Shown piece by piece: positions 2,060 to 59,163 of a stretch of DNA of 64,000 nucleotides. The stretch is taken from assembly GCA_037138755.1 (NCBI GenBank), contig JBAXHT010000001.1, positions 1,273,805 through 1,337,804 on the forward strand, given 5' to 3'. Under the pieces are notes generated by a model. It ran no database searches. It saw nothing but the letters and a program-made list of their open reading frames with translations, and was not told the origin of the DNA. Position 1 is the first letter of the stretch. Every line of letters starts with the position of its first letter. The translations under genes were made by a program, and so were the position numbers. This DNA comes from Armatimonadota bacterium (lineage in GTDB: Bacteria > Armatimonadota > Fimbriimonadia > Fimbriimonadales > Fimbriimonadaceae).

Positions 2060-2784
2060 CAAGCGACCTCGTTCGTGAGCTGGAGGAAGACTTCTTCGAG
2101 CGATTGCCCTTGCATGCCGTAGTGCTCGCGAAGCTGTTCGGGGCTACCCTCGGCGAGGAGCTTGCCTCTCGCCATGATCAGTACCCGGTCGCAGAGCTTT
2201 TCGGCGGTATCTAGCAGGTGTGTAGAAATGAGGACGGCGGCACCGCCTTCCTTCATTCGAACAATCTCTTGTTTGAGCTCATGAGCTCCGGCGGGGTCGA
2301 TGCCGATGAGGGGTTCGTCGAGGAGAAAGACGTTCGCTTCGTGAACCAGCGCGCAGGCGACCGACAACTTTTGCCGCATACCTTTACTAAGCGTTGCGAC
2401 GAGGTCGTTGCGCTTGTCCAGCAGGTGGTAGCGTGCGAGGAGTTCTTCGTGTTTGGCTTCAAATATCGGAAGGGTGTCGAAGCACATCGCAATGAAGCGC
2501 AGGTGCTCATAAACTGTTAGGAGCTCGTATAGGGACGGAACTTCGGGGACAAATGCGAGGCCGCGTTTGGCTTTTGCCTGTTGTTCGTTGATCTCGTAGC
2601 CGTTGATGAGCACTCGGCCGCTGGTTGCCCGCAGGATGCCGGCCATGCACCGCATCCCGGTGGTCTTCCCAGCTCCATTGGGGCCGATGAGGCCGACGAT
2701 TTCGCCAGGATTGATCCTAAAGGAGAGCTCGTTGACTGCTCTGTACTCTTTATATTCCTTTACCAAACCCTGAACTTCAAGCAT
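2059..2784 (-). CDS. ABC transporter ATP-binding protein
   Basis: This is a complete 241-residue nucleotide-binding subunit. Walker A is GPNGAGKTT (near residue 34), the signature motif is the variant LSKGMRQK (near 134), Walker B is VFLLDEP (near 152) and the switch histidine lies in ISTHLLD (near 188). The LSKGMRQ form is typical of ABC-2-type exporters of the CcmA/NatA class. The gene directly precedes, and overlaps, the large permease gene, so the pair is expected to work together as a homodimeric ATPase with one permease. The start ATG at 2784 places the usual LEVQGLVKEY strand at the N-terminus. Confidence 0.93.
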   Translation of the reverse strand: MLEVQGLVKEYKEYRAVNELSFRINPGEIVGLIGPNGAGKTTGMRCMAGILRATSGRVLINGYEINEQQAKAKRGLAFVPEVPSLYELLTVYEHLRFIAMCFDTLPIFEAKHEELLARYHLLDKRNDLVATLSKGMRQKLSVACALVHEANVFLLDEPLIGIDPAGAHELKQEIVRMKEGGAAVLISTHLLDTAEKLCDRVLIMARGKLLAEGSPEQLREHYGMQGQSLEEVFLQLTNEVA

Positions 2785-2863
2785 TTCTAACCCTCTGTTT
2801 CTACCTTAACGGGGCGGGAATGGGTTGCAGAAACGCGGCTTCTGTGCCAAGCTAGGAGAGTTT

Positions 2864-3811
2864 ATGAGCATTGAAGCCAAGGTCCAAAGTGTGCGATCCG
2901 AGATTAGTAAGGTCATCTCGGGGCAGCACGACGTGATCGACCAGATCATTGCGTCGACGTTGGCAAATGGACATGTTCTGCTCGAAGGCGTTCCAGGGCT
3001 TGGCAAGACACTTTTGGTTCGGACATTGGGGCATGTTTTCGGCCTTGAGTTTGGACGAGTCCAGTTCACCCCTGACCTCATGCCTTCGGACGTCACGGGA
3101 ACGATGATTTATGATGCCTCTACGGGCAAGTTCTCGTTTCGGCAGGGACCGGCGTTTGTTGGGCTTTTGCTTGCGGATGAGGTGAACCGAACCCCGCCAA
3201 AGACCCAGGCTGCTCTGCTCGAAGCGATGGAAGAGCGCAAGGTGACGGTTGACGGCACCTCCTACCAACTCCCATCGCCGTTTATTGTCATTGCGACTCA
3301 GAACCCGATTGAGTTTGAGGGCACTTATCCTCTTCCAGAAGCCCAGCAGGATCGCTTCTTGCTGAAGGTTTTGTTGCGCTATCCAACTCCGGAAGAAGAG
3401 ATGGGGGTTCTCAAGATCCACCACGCCGGCTTCTCTCCGCAAAATCTAGAGCAGGCCGGGGTTCAGCAAGTAGTTTCTCAGGCCGAGCTGCTTGAGCTGC
3501 AACGGGAAGTCAGGACGGCAACGGTTGAGGATAAGATTTTCAATTACATCTATCAGATCGTTCATGCCACGCGGGACAACCGAGACGTGATGGTTGGGGC
3601 ATCACCTCGAGCGGGGATTGCACTGATGAATATCAGCAAAGCGTTTGCATTCATGCGCGGCCGGAACTTTGTGACTCCGGATGACGTGAAGGAAATCGCT
3701 CCGGCGGTTCTGCGGCACCGGGTTTCGTTGCGGCCAGAAGCCGAGATTGAGGGGCAGACAGCGGATGACGTCATCAAGCGACTTCTTGACTCGGTTGCGG
3801 TTCCTCGGTAA
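2864..3811 (+). CDS. MoxR-family AAA+ ATPase
   Basis: This 315-residue protein has the AAA_3 core of MoxR ATPases. Walker A is EGVPGLGKT (about residues 42-50), Walker B is LLADEVNR (about 103-110), and ATQNPIE is the sensor 1 region. The C-terminal lid contains the sequence SPRAGIALM. MoxR proteins act as chaperones that assemble or activate partner complexes, often with VWA-domain proteins. The ATG at 2864 follows an AGGAG at 2854 with good spacing; a TTG at 2825 in the same frame is less likely. No VWA gene sits beside this copy, but a second moxR with DUF58/VWA partners lies at 12380-18823, so this one may act in trans or on the neighbouring foldase. Confidence 0.92.
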   Translation: MSIEAKVQSVRSEISKVISGQHDVIDQIIASTLANGHVLLEGVPGLGKTLLVRTLGHVFGLEFGRVQFTPDLMPSDVTGTMIYDASTGKFSFRQGPAFVGLLLADEVNRTPPKTQAALLEAMEERKVTVDGTSYQLPSPFIVIATQNPIEFEGTYPLPEAQQDRFLLKVLLRYPTPEEEMGVLKIHHAGFSPQNLEQAGVQQVVSQAELLELQREVRTATVEDKIFNYIYQIVHATRDNRDVMVGASPRAGIALMNISKAFAFMRGRNFVTPDDVKEIAPAVLRHRVSLRPEAEIEGQTADDVIKRLLDSVAVPR

Positions 3812-52079: not shown

Positions 52080-53057
52080 ATGAAAGCCCTCTTCATCGGC
52101 GGAACCGGGATCATCAGCTCCGCCAGCTCCCCCCTCGCCGTGAAGCAAGGCTTCGAACTCACCCTTCTCAACCGAGGAAAATCCGCCCGCCCGACCCCCG
52201 AAGGCGTCGAAGTCATCCACGGCGACATCAACAACCTCGAAGAAACCCAAAAACTCCTCAAAGGAAGAAAGTGGGACGTCGTCGTCAACTGGATCAACTT
52301 CGTTCCTAGCCAAATCGAACGCGACATCGAGCTCTTCCGAGGCAAAACCAACCAGTACATCTTCATCAGCAGCGCCAGCGCCTACCAAACCCCACCGGCC
52401 TCACTACCGGTAAGAGAATCCACCCCGCTCGATAACCCCTACTGGGAATACTCACGCAACAAAATCGCCTGCGAAGAAGCCCTGCTCAAGGCGTACCGCG
52501 ATGAAAAATTCCCCATGACCATCGTGCGCCCATCGCACACCTACGACAAAACCCTCCTCCCGTTCGACTACGGATACACCATCCTCGACCGAATGCTGAA
52601 AGGTAAGCCGGTCGTCGTCCACGGCGACGGAACCAGCCTCTGGACCCTCACCCACCACACCGATTTCGCCAAAGGCTTCGTCGGACTCATGGGCCACTCC
52701 GCCGCCATCGGCGAGGCGTTCCACATCACCAGTGATGAATGGCTCACCTGGAACCAGATCTACGACACCGTCGCCCGGGCCGCCGGAGTCGAGGCCAAAA
52801 AAGTCCACGTCCCCTCCGACATCCTCGCCGTCCGCGACCCCAACCGAGGCCCCGGCCTCCTCGGCGACAAATCCAACAGCTTCATCCTGGATAACTCAAA
52901 GATCAAGTCCCTCGTCCCCGCCTTCACCTGCACCACCCCCTTCAGCCGAGGCGCCCAAGAAATCGTAGCCCACTACACCGCCCCCGGAGTCAAAGGCGTA
53001 GTCGACCCACAGAAGGACGCGTTAGAAGACGAGCTTTGCGCGGAGTTTGCGAGCTGA
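52080..53057 (+). CDS. NAD-dependent epimerase/dehydratase (extended SDR)
   Basis: This 325-residue protein has a Rossmann fold with ALFIGGTGIISSASS in place of the canonical GGTGFIG. YIFISSASAY and YWEYSRNKIACEE supply the catalytic Ser and the Y-x3-K. It contains DRMLKGKPVVVHGDGTSLW, as in sugar-nucleotide epimerases. A role in sugar-nucleotide or natural-product modification is likely. It is preceded by the heptamer arrays and is the last gene before the accessory island; codon use is like the upstream genes, not the island. Confidence 0.88.
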   Translation: MKALFIGGTGIISSASSPLAVKQGFELTLLNRGKSARPTPEGVEVIHGDINNLEETQKLLKGRKWDVVVNWINFVPSQIERDIELFRGKTNQYIFISSASAYQTPPASLPVRESTPLDNPYWEYSRNKIACEEALLKAYRDEKFPMTIVRPSHTYDKTLLPFDYGYTILDRMLKGKPVVVHGDGTSLWTLTHHTDFAKGFVGLMGHSAAIGEAFHITSDEWLTWNQIYDTVARAAGVEAKKVHVPSDILAVRDPNRGPGLLGDKSNSFILDNSKIKSLVPAFTCTTPFSRGAQEIVAHYTAPGVKGVVDPQKDALEDELCAEFAS

Positions 53058-53087
53058 TCGCTGAAGCTCGGATTTCCTAGAATGGCT

Positions 53088-55253
53088 CTATGAGGCCAAA
53101 ACGTATTCCAGAACCCGGTTCACAATTGGGCTGTAAGCTCTCTGTCTTACCGAAAGTGCCGTTAAGTGCCTTGAGTATAGTATTCGGTTTTCCGGTGTCA
53201 CTAAACCACGTGCGAACATCAACAAGACTTCGTAGGGCAGGATATTCCAGTCACTCCTGGTGGAAAGCTGCCTAAACAGCCTTCTTAGCAGCAACGCTTG
53301 GTTGGTTCCACCCCACTCGTGCCGCTCTACGGCACGGATAAACAAAGCTTCCAGTAGCTCATCGTTGTACCTCTGTACCGTATTCCATGATAACACTTGA
53401 GGAGAGTAGTATTGTGCACTCAATCGAGCCGAAGAAGGCTCGGCCATTCTTAGATTCTGAAGTGCATTGGAAATGTACAACTGTGCTGCGATAGCCGACC
53501 ACCCCGCAGGAAAAACCTTCGAGCCTTGACTTACTGAAAGCCGAGAGTCAGTGACCGAACCGCCAGCAATGTCCCAACCGCTGATCAGTTTCCTTCGAAG
53601 AAGCTGTAGCCTGCCGCCACAGTCATCCTCTGCTTCGGGGGAAGACTCAATGACCTTCTCCAAGACTCTCGCTTCCTCACACCATGGGCACGCCAGCTCA
53701 GTTGAGAATGGAATTCGGTCCACAACATGAAGTTGTACTTTCCAAGAGTTTCCCCTCCCGATGGCGGATTGGACGCTGTCTATTTCAGGATCGGAGGTGC
53801 AAGCCAGACCCACCAGATAATCGACGGACGCAGGATTGTTATGGCTGGTAGCAAGTGTTCTGATTTGAACACTATCAGTGATGAGAGTATCCCCCGATGA
53901 GAGTCCTTCCCTAACAAAAAGTATCTTTTTGTCCTTTATGTCAGAACCTCTGGCTAGCTCGATCATTTTCACGGGCAAGCCCAGTTGCTTAGCTATACGA
54001 CTGCCAAGCGTAATGCTCGGTTCGAATCCAGCTGTAACGACTAGGTCAAACTGACGACCTTGCATCGTTGGTAGGGTTAATGCTTTGTTTATCCAGCTTT
54101 CAGATGTTGCAAGTACGCCAATATCAATGAAGAATGGAAAATGCCTATCCTCAAAGTCTCTATGGACCTGAATCGCGTCCGGAACGCGATCGTATAAGTC
54201 AATGCATGATCTCTGATCTGATCCGCGAAGCTCCTCCCACATTCCTTCCTTAACGGATGCATCGTACTTCAGTCCAAAATGGGCTGGCTTAACCTGCACG
54301 GTTGTCTCCGGCCATACTCTTGGATAGAAGAGCACAGGATCGATAGTTACCCGTTTTCTATCCAGGAACTGATCTGCGTTCGAAAAGCTTGAAATGTCCT
54401 CGATCACTCCGAGTGAATCATCTTTGATCTCCGGAGACGAGTCTGAGAGACAGAATAGGTAGCTCACCTTCGCGGTAATACTTGCAGGCGCATCCCTAAA
54501 AAGCTTCTCAACAATGGACTGGTACTTGCCGGTGCTACCTACGCTGGTGAGACATAGGATCGATGCCCCTTCGGCGACCCGGTCTTCAATGTTTTGCACG
54601 ACCTTGCCAGCATTCACCGAATCATGACTCGGATGAATCTCAAAACCCTGCACGGGAATTGACATCTCTGCGAGTTGCAACATCCTAAATGCAACTGCTG
54701 AAATTGACCACGTGTCAAGCAGAATCGCTGTCTTTTGGTGAAGGTAGGGGAGTGACCAAAATGCAAGTATATCGATGTGTTCAGCACTGTTGAGTAGATT
54801 TGCACATCGGAAAAAATCTTCGCAGAGGCTACCGGACGGGCTCAGAAAAACGAAACCTTCATTCTTATGTAGAGATAGTTTTTTCCCCGTTTCAATGAGT
54901 CGACCGATCTCCTGTTTTCGGATCTCTCTGCAGAGCTCGACATCTTCGATCCGTTCCAAAGTAACGTTGCTGCTCGTTCGACGAAGCGTATATAGTTCAA
55001 TCTGGTAGTCCTTAGGGCTGAAAGTTATGAAATAAAGATCAGCACTTACGCTACGTGCCGCCAGTGTCCTGTACTTGCTTTGAGTCGCCGCCTTTAATGT
55101 TTGCAGTAATCCTGGTGCTATCTTGACAACGACGGCCTGGGATCTGGCAAGCGCTTCGTTGGGAATAGCGTGAATACATGAATCCAGTTCATGTATAGTG
55201 GTGATGTCGAGACCACTGCAAATTTCGAATGGCAACACTGCAGATGAGCTCAT
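53088..55253 (-). CDS. Protein with two phosphoribosyltransferase-like domains, partner of a GHKL ATPase
   Basis: The 721-residue product has no match I know as a named enzyme. Two Rossmann-type regions resemble PRTases: about residues 155-270 with the loop LCLTSVGSTGKY, and about 365-485 with FDLVVTAGFEPSITLGSRIA followed by ILFVREGLSSGDTL. In both, the PRPP-loop acidic pair (usually D-D) is lost (T-S and R-E), so transferase activity is doubtful. A CPWC pair follows at about 522-525, then a helical C-terminus. ATG 55253 overlaps the ATPase stop (ATGA); GTG 55262 is an alternative. The DNA is visibly more A/T-rich than the flanks. A role in nucleotide sensing or defence is inference only. 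Confidence 0.8.
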   Translation of the reverse strand: MSSSAVLPFEICSGLDITTIHELDSCIHAIPNEALARSQAVVVKIAPGLLQTLKAATQSKYRTLAARSVSADLYFITFSPKDYQIELYTLRRTSSNVTLERIEDVELCREIRKQEIGRLIETGKKLSLHKNEGFVFLSPSGSLCEDFFRCANLLNSAEHIDILAFWSLPYLHQKTAILLDTWSISAVAFRMLQLAEMSIPVQGFEIHPSHDSVNAGKVVQNIEDRVAEGASILCLTSVGSTGKYQSIVEKLFRDAPASITAKVSYLFCLSDSSPEIKDDSLGVIEDISSFSNADQFLDRKRVTIDPVLFYPRVWPETTVQVKPAHFGLKYDASVKEGMWEELRGSDQRSCIDLYDRVPDAIQVHRDFEDRHFPFFIDIGVLATSESWINKALTLPTMQGRQFDLVVTAGFEPSITLGSRIAKQLGLPVKMIELARGSDIKDKKILFVREGLSSGDTLITDSVQIRTLATSHNNPASVDYLVGLACTSDPEIDSVQSAIGRGNSWKVQLHVVDRIPFSTELACPWCEEARVLEKVIESSPEAEDDCGGRLQLLRRKLISGWDIAGGSVTDSRLSVSQGSKVFPAGWSAIAAQLYISNALQNLRMAEPSSARLSAQYYSPQVLSWNTVQRYNDELLEALFIRAVERHEWGGTNQALLLRRLFRQLSTRSDWNILPYEVLLMFARGLVTPENRILYSRHLTALSVRQRAYSPIVNRVLEYVLAS

Positions 55254-56368
55254 TTTTGCCACAGTACAGTTATCGAGGTACCGAGACAGCCGCCACTTGT
55301 GCCGTCAAGCGGAACGAAACGGTCCCTAATCTCAGTGCCATTCTGGTAACAGCGAACAATTGTAGTTAAGCCCGGGGTGTCAACAATTACGGTTGCGTGC
55401 AGAACCTCGGAGGCTTCCACCAGACTGCTCAGTCCATAGCCGTTTCCCGACTTTCTACCTGGCTGGGCTTTAGTCGTAGTACCCGGCGTGAAGGCCAGTT
55501 TGACCAGCTCGAAATCAGCTAAATCTGATACGTTCGCAGGTTGGTTGGCTTCTCGAAACGAGTTTGGGATACCTCTACCGATATCTGCGACACCAACATA
55601 GTATGCCGGTGCCCCCGAGGCAACCCCCTTAAACAGGTCTCTATGATCTCTTAGGATGTCTGAGTTGGCGTCTTCGAGAGATTTTAGCTTTGCGCCAAAT
55701 ATACAGTAGTGTCCGAAGATTTCCGAACCGGCCCGGCTCTTTAAGCAGATGTCATGCTCCTCCGTCGCATTCTGCAGCGCCTGGTATAAAATCTCCGGCA
55801 ATTCGTTGACTCCCAGTTGCCTCTGATCTCCATACTGCTTATTAAGTACCAATGATTCGAACAGCTGATTCAGTCGCTTCCAACTTACCGTGCTGGTCGA
55901 CTCGTCGCTAGAGTTCTTTAGTTGCCTAAGAGGAAAGGGGAGTGGATGTATTGGGAACTTGCAGACTAGAGTCCAACCCGAATCATAAGACAACCTATCT
56001 CGGTGATCCTGATGCTGTTGCACTAAGGGAGCTCTTACATGATCTTCACGATCTAACTGTTTGTTGTCCTGACTAAAAGTTTTTGCAGCAAATACTAATG
56101 CGAACCCAAAGCCTGACGTTAAAAAGGTTGGGGGCATCTCGTCGGTCAACATTTCCTCTGGAAGAGATTGGAAGTTCAGGTGGATCGTTCGGCCTTCACG
56201 CTTCAAGTACTGAACCCACTGGATCGCAACGCCTTCGCAAAGCGGTTCTACCGCGAACTCTGCGGGTACTTTGACCTCAATGCTGACGCCAGCGGGCAAC
56301 TGACTGTGCTCTAAGATGAACGATCGGGTCAGATGTGTGGGAAGAGAAATGCAAAGACGAGCGCTCAT
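55250..56368 (-). CDS. GHKL ATPase with STAS-like N-terminus
   Basis: The 372-residue protein has an N-terminal part (about residues 1-100) that resembles an anti-sigma-antagonist or STAS fold (VSIEVKVPAEFAVEPLCEG, then a helix and HLNFQ). A GHKL domain follows with N box LYQALQNATEEHD (about 194-206), G1 box VADIGRGIPNSF (about 260-271), ATP lid AFTPGTTTKAQPGRKSGNG and G2 GNGYGLSSL (about 308-316). No dimerisation or phosphoacceptor His domain is present. It should bind ATP. Its TGA overlaps the start of the PRTase-like gene, so both are made together. ATG 56368 was chosen over TTG 56377; neither has a clear ribosome site. Confidence 0.82.
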   Translation of the reverse strand: MSARLCISLPTHLTRSFILEHSQLPAGVSIEVKVPAEFAVEPLCEGVAIQWVQYLKREGRTIHLNFQSLPEEMLTDEMPPTFLTSGFGFALVFAAKTFSQDNKQLDREDHVRAPLVQQHQDHRDRLSYDSGWTLVCKFPIHPLPFPLRQLKNSSDESTSTVSWKRLNQLFESLVLNKQYGDQRQLGVNELPEILYQALQNATEEHDICLKSRAGSEIFGHYCIFGAKLKSLEDANSDILRDHRDLFKGVASGAPAYYVGVADIGRGIPNSFREANQPANVSDLADFELVKLAFTPGTTTKAQPGRKSGNGYGLSSLVEASEVLHATVIVDTPGLTTIVRCYQNGTEIRDRFVPLDGTSGGCLGTSITVLWQK

Positions 56369-56418
56369 GAACACCAAGTTGGAAAAAATCTGCTAGCCAA
56401 AAGCCTGAGATGTATCCT

Positions 56419-56424
56419 ATTATA
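56419..56424 (-). promoter_or_regulatory. Perfect TATAAT box upstream of the GHKL/PRTase-like operon
   Basis: On the minus strand a consensus TATAAT lies 50 bases upstream of the ATPase start, inside an A/T-rich stretch. No clear -35 box is found at 16-18 bases, where repeat copy A begins; a weak one may be supplied by the repeat. The box is the best candidate promoter for the operon. Confidence 0.4.
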
Positions 56425-56447
56425 ATCCGCTGTTTAGCTAGCCATGA

Positions 56448-56669
56448 GCGTGGGAGGTACGAGCAGGTGTGTACAGGGTTGGCATTGTCAAGCGACCAAA
56501 CACCTAGAACTTCCGACCACCGGAAAACGAGCTTGTCAGTGAACAGTCTCCCGCTCGTGCCCCACCTCTCGCCACCCTCCCCCGGACGGGTAGAAATCCG
56601 CAAATCCCTGGTTGACAAACCCCCGATTTCGTCGCCTATGTATTGATGATGAAATCCTGCAGACCGCGA
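56448..56669. repeat. Dispersed repeat, copy A
   Basis: This copy runs from GCGTGGGAGG to CTGCAGACCGCG. It contains blocks shared with copies B and C: AGCGACCAAACAC, GAACTTCCGACCACCGGAA, AGCTTGTCAGTGAACAG, CCCTGGTTGACA and GATTTCGTCGCCTATG. Read on the minus strand these blocks give open frames without start signals, so I treat it as a non-coding repeat. It lies directly upstream of the GHKL operon and only about 15 bases from copy B, in the same orientation. Confidence 0.8.
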
Positions 56670-56683
56670 ACGGCGAGCCACTG

Positions 56684-56811
56684 GCGTGGGCGGGGTAAGC
56701 AGGAGTTCGAGGGGTGGCACTGGCAAGCGACCAAACACCGAGAACTTCCGACCGCCGGAAAGGTAGCTTGTCAGTGAACAGCCTCCCGCTCATGCCCCCT
56801 CCTCCCGCCCG
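56684..56811. repeat. Dispersed repeat, copy B (first half only)
   Basis: The copy matches A and C over GCGTGGGCGGGG, GGGGTGGCACTGGCAAGCGA, AACTTCCGACCGCCGGAA and AGCTTGTCAGTGAACAGCCT, and ends after CCTCCCGCCC, where A and C continue for another 90 bases. It is therefore a truncated unit. It sits between copy A and the terminator-like hairpin of the PEP-CTERM gene. Confidence 0.8.
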
Positions 56812-56829
56812 ACTCAATTTGAACTGGTT

Positions 56830-56860
56830 GCTACCCCGAGATCCATAATCCCGGGGTAGC
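56830..56860 (-). terminator. Hairpin downstream of the PEP-CTERM gene
   Basis: GCTACCCCG and CGGGGTAGC form a nine-pair stem, extended by three further pairs after one mismatch, around a five-base loop. It lies 28 bases past the stop of the minus-strand PEP-CTERM gene. A T tract is lacking, so termination efficiency is uncertain; it may also protect the 3' end of the mRNA. Confidence 0.45.
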
Positions 56861-56887
56861 AGAAGTGATCTACTAGCCTGAGCGAGC

Positions 56888-57649
56888 TCAGGCCTTCTTG
56901 CGGCGCTTAAGAAGAGCTAGCCCACCAAGCGCAAGGGCGGTCATCGATGCTGGTTCTGGAACCGAGTCGAATCGCGCCATCGGCGTAAATCCGGTCCAAC
57001 CAGTATCGCGTCGGAACGTGCCAACTCCACCAACTCCACCGTCGGTGTAGTTGCCAGCGGTCTGAGTGTTCCAATACGTATCATCAGCGTCAACATCCGT
57101 GCCAATTGTTGGAGCCGTGTTGATCACTGCATAGTTTAGTGAGTTATAGGGACCGCCCGCTCCGATTGGGTTTGCCCCCCAAGTTTCGGTGTTGTAAGCC
57201 AGTCCATAGATGAAAGTATCTGGGTAGTTGAGGTTGAGCGAGGAAAGGTCAAACGTGACGTTCTGAGCAATGCCGTTGAAGCCAAAAACTTCTGGTCGGT
57301 AAAGGATGCTAAAGGTTTGAGTCTTCGTAGCGAGCAATGCGCCAACTGTGTTTCCCGCACCAGCGGCGTAAATGTTGAGCGTCAAAGGGTGGTCGAACGT
57401 CGTTGCCGTGCCAACGGTTGGCCACTCGCTTTTCTTTGCCCAACTGCTCAGTGTGAACGTAGCAGCCGTTGCAAGCCGGGTTGAACCCGCCAAAGTGATC
57501 TTGTTGCCAAACTCTGCGGTTTGTGTCGCTTGGTAACCGAGGCTGGGATAGTTACCCGCCAGTGTCGAAGGAATGTTGTCAAAGACAACTTGCGCCTGAG
57601 AAGAAGCCGCCAACAGCAAAGTTGCGCCTGCTAAAGATAAGTTTTTCAT
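56888..57649 (-). CDS. PEP-CTERM sorting-signal protein
   Basis: The 253-residue protein has a signal peptide (LAGATLLLAASSQAQ) and a beta-rich secreted body of about 200 residues. The C-terminal PEP-CTERM tag comprises VPEPASM, a hydrophobic span TALALGGLALL and the basic end KRRKKA. Such proteins are sorted and processed by an exosortase at the cell envelope, often with exopolysaccharide. The body is Gly/Thr/Asn-rich, probably a choice-of-anchor or adhesin-like domain; I recognise no named family. The gene lies between repeat copies B and C and its hairpin follows the stop. No exosortase gene is in the window. Confidence 0.88.
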   Translation of the reverse strand: MKNLSLAGATLLLAASSQAQVVFDNIPSTLAGNYPSLGYQATQTAEFGNKITLAGSTRLATAATFTLSSWAKKSEWPTVGTATTFDHPLTLNIYAAGAGNTVGALLATKTQTFSILYRPEVFGFNGIAQNVTFDLSSLNLNYPDTFIYGLAYNTETWGANPIGAGGPYNSLNYAVINTAPTIGTDVDADDTYWNTQTAGNYTDGGVGGVGTFRRDTGWTGFTPMARFDSVPEPASMTALALGGLALLKRRKKA

Positions 57650-57819
57650 GTTAAGCCCAATCAGAACCCGCGAAAATGCTGGTTCAACATGTCAAGAATA
57701 GAGCAAGTCTCCATTCAGCAGGCATGATTACCGGAATTTCCTAACTTAAACTAGCAAATGTGCTGTGGTGCTTAGAATTCATCCAGCTACGTCTCGCATT
57801 CCATCATGTTTTGGAAAGA

Positions 57820-57948
57820 AGCTTATCGATCAAGACTCCGACTCGGCAAGAATCGGAAGATACTGGTAGGCCCGCAAGAGTGATGCGCTTTTGGCGTAAC
57901 GACTATCAACAGGATGCCATCGCCGAGCAAATTGCATGGGTGAGGTAA
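57820..57948 (+). pseudogene. Truncated copy of the N-terminus of the downstream sigma factor
   Basis: The frame reads SLSIKTPTRQE, then a stretch ending GRPARVMRFWRNDYQQD, and stops at 57948. The sigma-factor gene at 58519 reads SLSIKAPTREE and ends GRLGRAMLFGRRDYKKD over the same length, without gaps. Many of the base differences are synonymous, so both copies once encoded protein. The match ends where repeat copy C begins (57934), which suggests that the repeat replaced the rest of the gene. No start codon of its own is convincing. Confidence 0.65.
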
Positions 57949-58180
57949 TAAGGAGGATCAGGGGTGGCACTGTCCGGCGACCAAACACAGACAACTTCCG
58001 ACCACCCGAAAAATAGCTTGTCCGCAGAATGTCCCGATGAAATCGGGATGAACAGCCTGCCGCTCATGCCCCCGCCTCCCGCCCCTTTTCCATCGGGCGG
58101 ATGGAATTCCGCAACTCCCTGGTTGACAGACCCCCGATTTCGTCGCCTATGGATTGATGATGAAATTCTGCAGACCGCGC
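57934..58180. repeat. Dispersed repeat, copy C
   Basis: This full-length copy runs from GCATGGGTGAGG to CTGCAGACCGCG and matches copy A throughout. It has an insertion with a small stem (TCCCGAT / ATCGGGA) in the middle of the first half, at about 58032-58048. It has the same orientation as A and B. It stands between the PEP-CTERM gene and the sigma-factor gene and abuts the sigma-like fragment. Confidence 0.8.
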
Positions 58181-58518
58181 GCTAAGCATGCCGATCATGC
58201 CGATCAGGCCGGGGCATCTCACCGTCCCACGCTGATGTTCGAGCAAAGCCCAGAAAAAGGCTCACAACAAGGCTCAGTTCCAACCTCTACACGCCTACCC
58301 AACCCTACCCAACGTTCGCCCAAAATCCGAACTTCGTTGAACCTGACTACCCATCAAAATGCGTTGCAGTTCTTTCTTCGAGAACCGCTCAAGACTCGAG
58401 ATCCCTGCCCCTCAAACTCCACGCACGCCTACCGCGCCAAAACACGACAAACCCAGCAACAAACCCGGAACCAAACCCCAACCCCGCCTGTTGAAACCCC
58501 ACAGAGGTTCAACACCAG
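58181..58518. other. Intergenic stretch before the sigma-factor gene
   Basis: No gene is supported here. The stretch begins with a direct repeat (GCCGATCAT/GCCGATCAG) and continues with C- and A-rich, low-complexity sequence such as CTACCCAACCCTACCCAACG and CCAAACCCCAACCCCGCC. It probably contains the promoter of the sigma/anti-sigma pair, but no consensus boxes are obvious. Confidence 0.5.
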
Positions 58519-59163
58519 ATGGCACTGGGGATCAGTTTAAGTATCAAAGCTCCGACTAGGGAGGAAACAGATGGGAAAGGTAGACTCGGACGAGCCATGC
58601 TCTTCGGGCGCCGAGACTACAAAAAGGACTCGTTCGAGCAGCAAGCCGAGCGAGTGTTCAGCTCCGTCTTCGGCACCGCCCTGCGCCTCACTCGAAGCCG
58701 CGAAGAAGCCGAAGACCTCGCCCAAGAAGCCATCGTCCGAGCCTACGAGGCCTACGACCGCTTCGACGGAACCAATTTCAAAGCGTGGATCCTGCGGATC
58801 ACCACCAACCTCTACATCAACAAGTACCGATCCCGCCAACGCGGACCGATGATGGCATCGCTCGAAGACGAAAACGTCGCCGAGCCAATGTCAACCGAAG
58901 CCCAAATCCCCGACCGCCAACTGTTCGACGGAATGGTCGGAGCCGAGGTAGAAAAGGCCCTCAAGAGCGTCCCCGATGAATTCCGGCTCGCCGTCATCCT
59001 CAGCGATGTGGAAGAAATGAGCTACCAGGAAATCGCCGACGCAACCGGAGTTCCCATCGGCACGGTACGATCTCGAATTGCGCGAGGGCGAGCCATGCTC
59101 CGCCGCTCGCTCGAAAGTTATGCCCTCAAAGAGGGATTTATTAAGGAAGGCGAAGATCTATGA
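58519..59163 (+). CDS. ECF RNA polymerase sigma factor
   Basis: This sigma factor of about 214 residues has region 2 (SFEQQAERVFSSVFGTALRL; SREEAEDLAQEAIVRAYEAY; WILRITTNLYINKYRSRQRG) and region 4 (LKSVPDEFRLAVILSDVEEM; YQEIADATGVPIGTVRSRIA). The N-terminal extension (about 26 residues before the MLFGRRDY segment) is echoed at protein level by the truncated copy at 57820, which supports ATG 58519 over ATG 58597. It overlaps the anti-sigma gene (ATGA). It probably controls an envelope regulon; the following amylase may be a target. Confidence 0.93.
   Translation: MALGISLSIKAPTREETDGKGRLGRAMLFGRRDYKKDSFEQQAERVFSSVFGTALRLTRSREEAEDLAQEAIVRAYEAYDRFDGTNFKAWILRITTNLYINKYRSRQRGPMMASLEDENVAEPMSTEAQIPDRQLFDGMVGAEVEKALKSVPDEFRLAVILSDVEEMSYQEIADATGVPIGTVRSRIARGRAMLRRSLESYALKEGFIKEGEDL

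What the first reader, a model, noticed from the sequence alone, without database searches (positions are those of the whole stretch)
53088..56368. Two-gene operon of a GHKL ATPase and a tandem PRTase-like protein in an A/T-rich island
Seen: a STAS-like/GHKL ATPase is translationally coupled (ATGA) to a 721-residue protein with two PRTase-like folds, in DNA visibly richer in A/T than both flanks, next to dispersed repeats and away from any pathway genes. Known: GHKL ATPases without kinase partners (for example MORC-like ones) and orphan PRTase domains occur in bacterial conflict systems. Inferred: the pair could be an ATP-gated sensor with a nucleotide-handling or nucleotide-sensing effector. 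I know of no named system with this exact pair.
Basis: partly seen in the sequence, partly recalled or inferred. Interest (0 to 1): 0.75.

Follow-up and report, generated by a model that had tools for sequence, protein, structure and literature searches.

The report
Divergent PDC-M65-like candidate anti-phage pair
Two overlapping genes, an ATPase and a partner containing a nucleotide-binding-like fold, form a distant member of a widespread but untested candidate anti-phage system, sitting at a chromosomal spot where sister species carry other candidate defence genes.

Summary
Window 53088-56368 (minus strand) encodes a 372-aa GHKL-type ATPase (A) and a 721-aa protein (B) joined by an ATGA overlap, in the lowest-GC stretch of the window (0.491 against a mean of 0.548). 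The pair is not wholly unnamed. B matches PADLOC "phage defence candidate" PDC-M65B (4e-12), and profiles built from relatives find A (4.5e-7) and B (2.9e-31). The same A-then-B operon is present at 35 of 35 testable loci in Proteobacteria, Acidobacteriota, Myxococcota and Bacteroidota, often beside Qat, DISARM, MADS, RM, TIR/pAgo or ThiF genes. In the window's own phylum only 2 of 291 genomes have B. Two sister species carry other candidate defence genes at the same site (AbiJ_NTD4/PDC-S32; PD-(D/E)XK/PDC-S26), so the site looks like a defence hotspot. Modelling supports a GHKL fold in A and one PRTase fold in B (residues ~366-514, Z 15). The second PRTase fold is unproven, and the PRPP loop is degenerate, so B is more likely a ligand-binding partner than a PRTase enzyme. 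Defence is probable; the mechanism is inferred. I found no experimental test of any member.

The parts
55250..56368 (-). gene A: 372-aa GHKL ATPase, relative of PDC-M65A; N-box N200 (with Q196 in place of the family Glu), DIGRGIP G1 box (262-266), GNGYG G2 box (about 308-312)
   Evidence: ORF; Pfam HATPase_c E 0.028, below cut-off; family profile without the window finds it alone among 275 window ORFs, E 4.5e-7; fold Z 10 to SpoIIAB; motif columns
53088..55253 (-). gene B: 721-aa partner, relative of PDC-M65B
   Evidence: PADLOC PDC-M65B E 4.2e-12; family profile E 2.9e-31; hhalign 98.3%, E 1.3e-14
53709..54158 (-). B residues about 366-515: type I PRTase fold with degenerate PRPP loop (ILFVREGLSSGDTL, residues 444-457)
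   Evidence: Model and PDB comparison, Z up to 15.0; loop composition
54354..54881 (-). B residues about 125-300: first alpha/beta region with family-invariant D180 and S237 (family motif SATTSG); possibly a second PRTase-like fold, unproven
   Evidence: (lower pLDDT)
53106..53651 (-). B C-terminal helical region (residues about 535-716) with the family-invariant R602, R628, D631, R640, E646
   Evidence: Alignment A6 invariant columns
55250..55253 (-). ATGA stop/start overlap of A and B; a 4-base overlap is also the commonest spacing in relatives
   Evidence: spacing list
53050..56440 (.). low-GC insert: homology to two sister species stops at 53047-53049 (3' end of the epimerase gene) and resumes at the repeats from 56440
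52080..53057 (+). left anchor of the hotspot: NAD-dependent epimerase, 94-98% identical in sisters
58519..59163 (+). right anchor of the hotspot: sigma factor-like gene, conserved in all 20 genomes of the genus tested

Best explanation
The pair is a horizontally acquired two-gene anti-phage defence module, a divergent relative of the uncharacterised PADLOC candidate PDC-M65. Shown here: conserved operon, folds, patchiness, defence-island context and hotspot replacement. Inferred: A and B form a complex in which A is an ATP-gated switch of the SpoIIAB/GyrB type. In that complex the PRTase-like region of B binds a nucleotide-type ligand (PRPP, a nucleotide or an alarmone) without making a product, and infection releases an activity of the conserved C-terminal helical region of B, probably ending in growth arrest or cell death. 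I put defence function at about 0.75 and this specific sensing mechanism at about 0.3.
For: Same A-then-B order, overlapping or at most 8 bp apart, in 25/25 testable genome loci; A directly before B in 10/10 plasmid loci with a complete B, plus a second genome of the phylum. A and B trees co-vary (Mantel r 0.90; 0 of 2000 permutations reach it). Neighbours include Qat, TIR genes, ThiF/multiubiquitin, DISARM, MADS, type I and IIG RM, pAgo-TIR, ThsA and SoFic. Rare in own phylum: B in 2/291, A in 1/291 by single-protein search, none of 60 relatives. The same site holds AbiJ_NTD4/PDC-S32 in one sister and PDDEXK_4/PDC-S26 in another. Lowest GC of the window. No aligned B protein has the acidic PRPP-loop pair; 25 of 26 lack both residues and the window keeps only E449, which favours binding over catalysis. 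GHKL motifs are conserved in the family.
Against: No experiment on any member was found (and paper searches). No known defence gene lies next to the pair in the window itself. A alone does not reach the PADLOC PDC-M65A model or Pfam's cut-off. The N-box Glu is Gln in this copy, so hydrolysis may be impaired. The G167 homologue carries an in-frame stop. The flank survey had no matched control set, and ligand and effector chemistry are pure inference.
Confidence: 0.7

Rival explanations
1. B is an active phosphoribosyltransferase that consumes PRPP or makes a modified nucleotide signal when A is triggered (nucleotide-depletion or second-messenger defence).
For: Clear type I PRTase fold; the window copy keeps one acidic residue and an SSGDT-like phosphate loop (ILFVREGLSSGDTL); published precedent for PRTases in Ter immunity proposals (PMC5512222).
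Against: The canonical acidic pair of the PRPP loop is absent in all 26 aligned members; only the window keeps one acidic residue, E449.
Confidence: 0.15
2. The pair is a partner-switching regulator (SpoIIAB-like kinase with an N-terminal STAS-like part) that controls a host stress response rather than acting as immunity.
For: Best fold matches of A include the anti-sigma factors SpoIIAB (Z 10.0, 9.7) and UsfX (Z 8.2); a sigma factor gene lies about 2.2 kb away.
Against: That sigma gene is present in all 20 genomes of the genus, while the pair is absent from its other members. The pair travels alone across phyla and into defence islands.
Confidence: 0.1
3. Ordinary host metabolic or housekeeping operon.
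For: PRTase fold and, in Rhizobiales only, a thyX gene directly upstream.
Against: Patchy: 1-2 of 291 genomes of the phylum; replaced by unrelated genes at the same site in sisters.
Confidence: 0.04
4. Decaying, no longer functional copy of a PDC-M65 module.
For: Most divergent member (about 17-20% identity); N-box Glu to Gln; a homologue with an in-frame stop in G167.
Against: Both frames are full length with the ATGA overlap kept, and the GHKL G boxes and the invariant residues of B are conserved.
Confidence: 0.1

Closest known systems
PADLOC phage defence candidate PDC-M65 (models PDC-M65A PDLC04764, PDC-M65B PDLC04765)
   Same: Same two components in the same order and size; B matches PDC-M65B directly; the G167 pair matches both models.
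   Different: The window A does not reach the PDC-M65A model; about 17-20% identity to other members; Gln replaces the N-box Glu; it lacks the mid-protein CxxC...G motif seen in many members. PDC-M65 itself is only a candidate.
Anti-sigma factor kinases of the SpoIIAB type and GyrB-type GHKL ATPases
   Same: Fold of the A ATPase region.
   Different: A has an additional N-terminal region and an obligate PRTase-like partner; no sigma or anti-anti-sigma partner gene is linked.
Type I phosphoribosyltransferases and the PRPP-binding regulator PurR
   Same: Fold of B residues ~366-514 (Z up to 15); PurR is a PRTase-fold ligand binder found among the matches.
   Different: Degenerate PRPP loop; embedded in a 721-aa protein with a conserved helical C-terminus that matches no Pfam family.
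GHKL-containing defence proteins such as VcSduA (Shedu type, PMC12137116)
   Same: A GHKL ATPase proposed to gate an effector in phage defence.
   Different: VcSduA is one protein with a PD-(D/E)xK nuclease; here there are two proteins and no recognised nuclease.

Membership tests
PDC-M65 (PADLOC candidate) | B-type protein matching PDC-M65B | tested here: met
   E 4.2e-12; own family profile E 2.9e-31
PDC-M65 (PADLOC candidate) | A-type protein matching PDC-M65A | tested here: inconclusive
   No match to the PADLOC model at E up to 1, but the family profile excluding the window finds it, E 4.5e-7 over N- and C-terminal parts; hhalign 52%, E 1.4e-4
PDC-M65 (PADLOC candidate) | A directly upstream of B, overlapping or nearly so | tested here: met
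   ATGA overlap; A directly before B in 25/25 genome loci and 10/10 plasmid loci
PDC-M65 (PADLOC candidate) | Defence-island location | tested here: met
   Met for relatives; for the window through sister species with other candidate defence genes at the same site
GHKL ATPase | Bergerat fold with N, G1 and G2 boxes | tested here: met
   Fold Z 10 to SpoIIAB; N200, D262/G264/G266, G310/G312. The catalytic N-box Glu is Gln here
Type I phosphoribosyltransferase | PRTase fold | tested here: met
   Residues ~366-514, Z 15.0
Type I phosphoribosyltransferase | Acidic PRPP-binding loop needed for catalysis | tested here: not met
   No acidic pair in family; R448-E449 in window
Tandem PRTase protein | Second PRTase fold in the N-terminal half | tested here: inconclusive
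   Half-to-half hhalign P 0.01, probability 4%; low model confidence there
HEPN RNase effector | Conserved Rx4-6H motif | tested here: not met
   The window has RAVERH (640-645), but the His is not conserved; R640 and E646 are the invariant residues
Anti-phage defence system | Protection against phage | not testable with these tools
   Needs plaque assays

The most novel reading that the evidence does not exclude
A GHKL ATPase and a catalytically dead PRTase-fold protein form an immune complex that reads the cell's nucleotide or PRPP state and triggers an effector fold in the helical C-terminus of B that matches no described family: a new class of metabolite-sensing immunity, with this copy working as an ATP-binding rather than ATP-hydrolysing switch.
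Probability: 0.25. Interest if true: 0.8.

Novelty: new member of a known kind. Interest (0 to 1): 0.45.

Why it matters
PDC-M65 is catalogued as a candidate, but I found no experiment or mechanism for it. This case extends it to a new phylum, shows the family's strict two-gene architecture, assigns a PRTase fold to B and points to residues to mutate. The sister-species comparison also exposes a small chromosomal spot (3' end of an epimerase gene) that holds a different candidate defence module in each species, a convenient place to look for further systems in this lineage.

Tried and rejected
Plasmid and viral searches with the window proteins themselves found nothing; the G167 homologue was needed as a bridge. 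The phage collection had no B homologue. Pfam and NCBIfam have no family for B in the window and none credible in 26 members; sequence search of solved structures gave nothing credible. A HEPN-type effector was considered for the C-terminus (RAVERH) and rejected because the His is not conserved. A link to the nearby sigma factor gene was rejected: it is genus-wide, the pair is not. A thyX link was considered and limited to Rhizobiales. 'Housekeeping operon' was rejected by distribution. No integrase and no flanking direct repeat were found in the window insert. Paper searches returned no PDC-M65 study; the library holds only open-licence papers, so a subscription paper or preprint could exist.

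Full report
Observation. On the minus strand, gene A runs from ATG 56368 to TGA 55250 (372 aa) and gene B from ATG 55253 to 53088 (721 aa), with an ATGA overlap. The cassette has GC 0.491; same-length windows across the 64 kb average 0.548 (sd 0.015) and the cassette is the minimum. Dispersed repeats flank it on the A side and occur about 29 times in the genome.

What the proteins are. Pfam gives A only a sub-threshold HATPase_c match and B nothing. PADLOC identifies B as PDC-M65B at 4.2e-12. A second genome of the phylum (G167) has the same operon; its proteins match PDC-M65A (1.9e-15) and PDC-M65B (2.5e-65), although B there has an in-frame TAG (read through only for the search). With that pair as a bridge, plasmid loci were found, and a genome-wide scan gave 27 more loci. 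A profile made from these relatives without the window finds window A at 4.5e-7 (only hit among 275 ORFs, covering both N- and C-terminal parts) and window B at 2.9e-31. The window pair is the most divergent member (about 17-20% identity).

Structure. The AlphaFold2 model of A is of modest quality (pLDDT 60, pTM 0.66), but its matches are all GHKL ATPases, best SpoIIAB at Z 10.0 over 135 residues. The motifs agree: N200, D262/G264/G266 and G310/G312 are invariant in 24 sequences. The Glu at the N-box, nearly invariant in the family, is Gln196 in the window, so this copy may bind ATP but hydrolyse it poorly (inference). The model of B (pLDDT 69.5) contains a type I PRTase fold at residues ~366-514, Z 15.0 to an orotate PRTase. 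The PRPP loop lacks the acidic pair throughout the family; the window has ILFVREGLSSGDTL. The region 125-300 is another alpha/beta stretch with invariant D180 and S237; a profile comparison of the two halves is only suggestive (P 0.01, probability 4%), so 'tandem PRTase' stays unproven. The C-terminal helical region holds a cluster of invariant residues (R602, R628, D631, R640, E646) and matches no Pfam family.

A fixed pair that moves. A lies directly upstream of B in 25/25 genome loci where the contig allows the test, with a 4-base overlap the commonest spacing, and in the 10 plasmid loci with a complete B gene (in one of these, Spirosoma, B is annotated as two ORFs, and the eleventh hit, L018, is a fragment). 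Distances in the A and B trees correlate (r 0.90, 0/2000 permutations). Hosts span alpha-, beta- and gammaproteobacteria, Acidobacteria, Myxococcales, Bacteroidota and the window's phylum. In that phylum, B is in 2 of 291 genomes and absent from all 60 closest relatives tested. This fits horizontal spread, not vertical housekeeping.

Defence context. Neighbours in relatives include a complete-looking Qat operon, TIR genes with ThiF/multiubiquitin and dgt, ThiF/multiubiquitin, ThiF and nucleases, and, in the genome loci, DISARM, MADS, type I and type IIG RM, pAgo-TIR, ThsA and SoFic proteins. No matched control set was scanned, so I give no enrichment value.

Hotspot. The two closest sister species (94-98% protein identity at the anchors) keep the epimerase and the sigma factor gene on either side but differ in between. 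Homology stops at 53047-53049, the 3' end of the epimerase gene, in both. One sister has an AbiJ_NTD4 protein (PDC-S32, 2.8e-61), the other a PD-(D/E)XK protein (PDC-S26, 4.7e-11). Three different candidate defence modules at one site in three sister species is the strongest local evidence that the window pair is cargo of the defence kind.

Mechanism. Shown: operon, folds, co-divergence, mobility, context. Inferred: A is an ATP-gated switch, B binds a nucleotide-like ligand through a non-catalytic PRTase fold, and the conserved helical C-terminus of B is the effector or interaction module; outcome probably abortive. An active PRTase, a partner-switching regulator and a decayed copy are the rivals. 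In Rhizobiales a thyX gene sits directly upstream (four of four), a hint, no more, that thymidylate metabolism matters in that branch.

Verdict. Real, probably defence, a divergent member of an existing but untested candidate (PDC-M65).

Noticed in passing
window 53050-58449; L060 (G016) and L061 (G001): The interval between an epimerase gene and a sigma factor gene is a small variable hotspot: PDC-M65-like pair in the window, AbiJ_NTD4 (PDC-S32) plus a 267-aa ORF in G016, PD-(D/E)XK (PDC-S26) plus other ORFs in G001.
   Followed up: yes
window 56440-56820 and 57916-58180: Dispersed repeat family (89-107 nt units), about 29 places in the genome and also at the same site in both sisters; G001 has a Y1/REP-associated-type transposase ORF in the same interval, so these may be REP-like elements.
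   Followed up: partly
L061 reverse complement about 1545-1646: In sister G001 the last ~100 bp of the epimerase gene are duplicated about 150 bp downstream (86% identical to the window's gene end), as if integration had happened at the gene's 3' end.
   Followed up: partly
L009 5696-6634, L010 5679-6617, L012 5558-6496, L041 5558-6496: In Rhizobiales a thyX gene (FAD-dependent thymidylate synthase) sits directly upstream of the pair in all four loci seen, three on plasmids; not seen elsewhere.
   Followed up: partly
L007 10778-10780: The B homologue of genome G167 (same family as the window's organism) has an in-frame TAG: sequencing error, recoding or inactivation.
   Followed up: no
window A residue 196 (window 55781-55783): Gln in place of the nearly invariant N-box Glu of the family; may convert the ATPase to an ATP-binding switch.
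   Followed up: partly
L060 reverse complement 2599-3402: 267-aa ORF (MSTPKYLLYIDILGFSNLV...) next to the AbiJ_NTD4 gene in G016, no Pfam or PADLOC match; its start resembles nucleotide cyclase-like proteins by eye.
   Followed up: no
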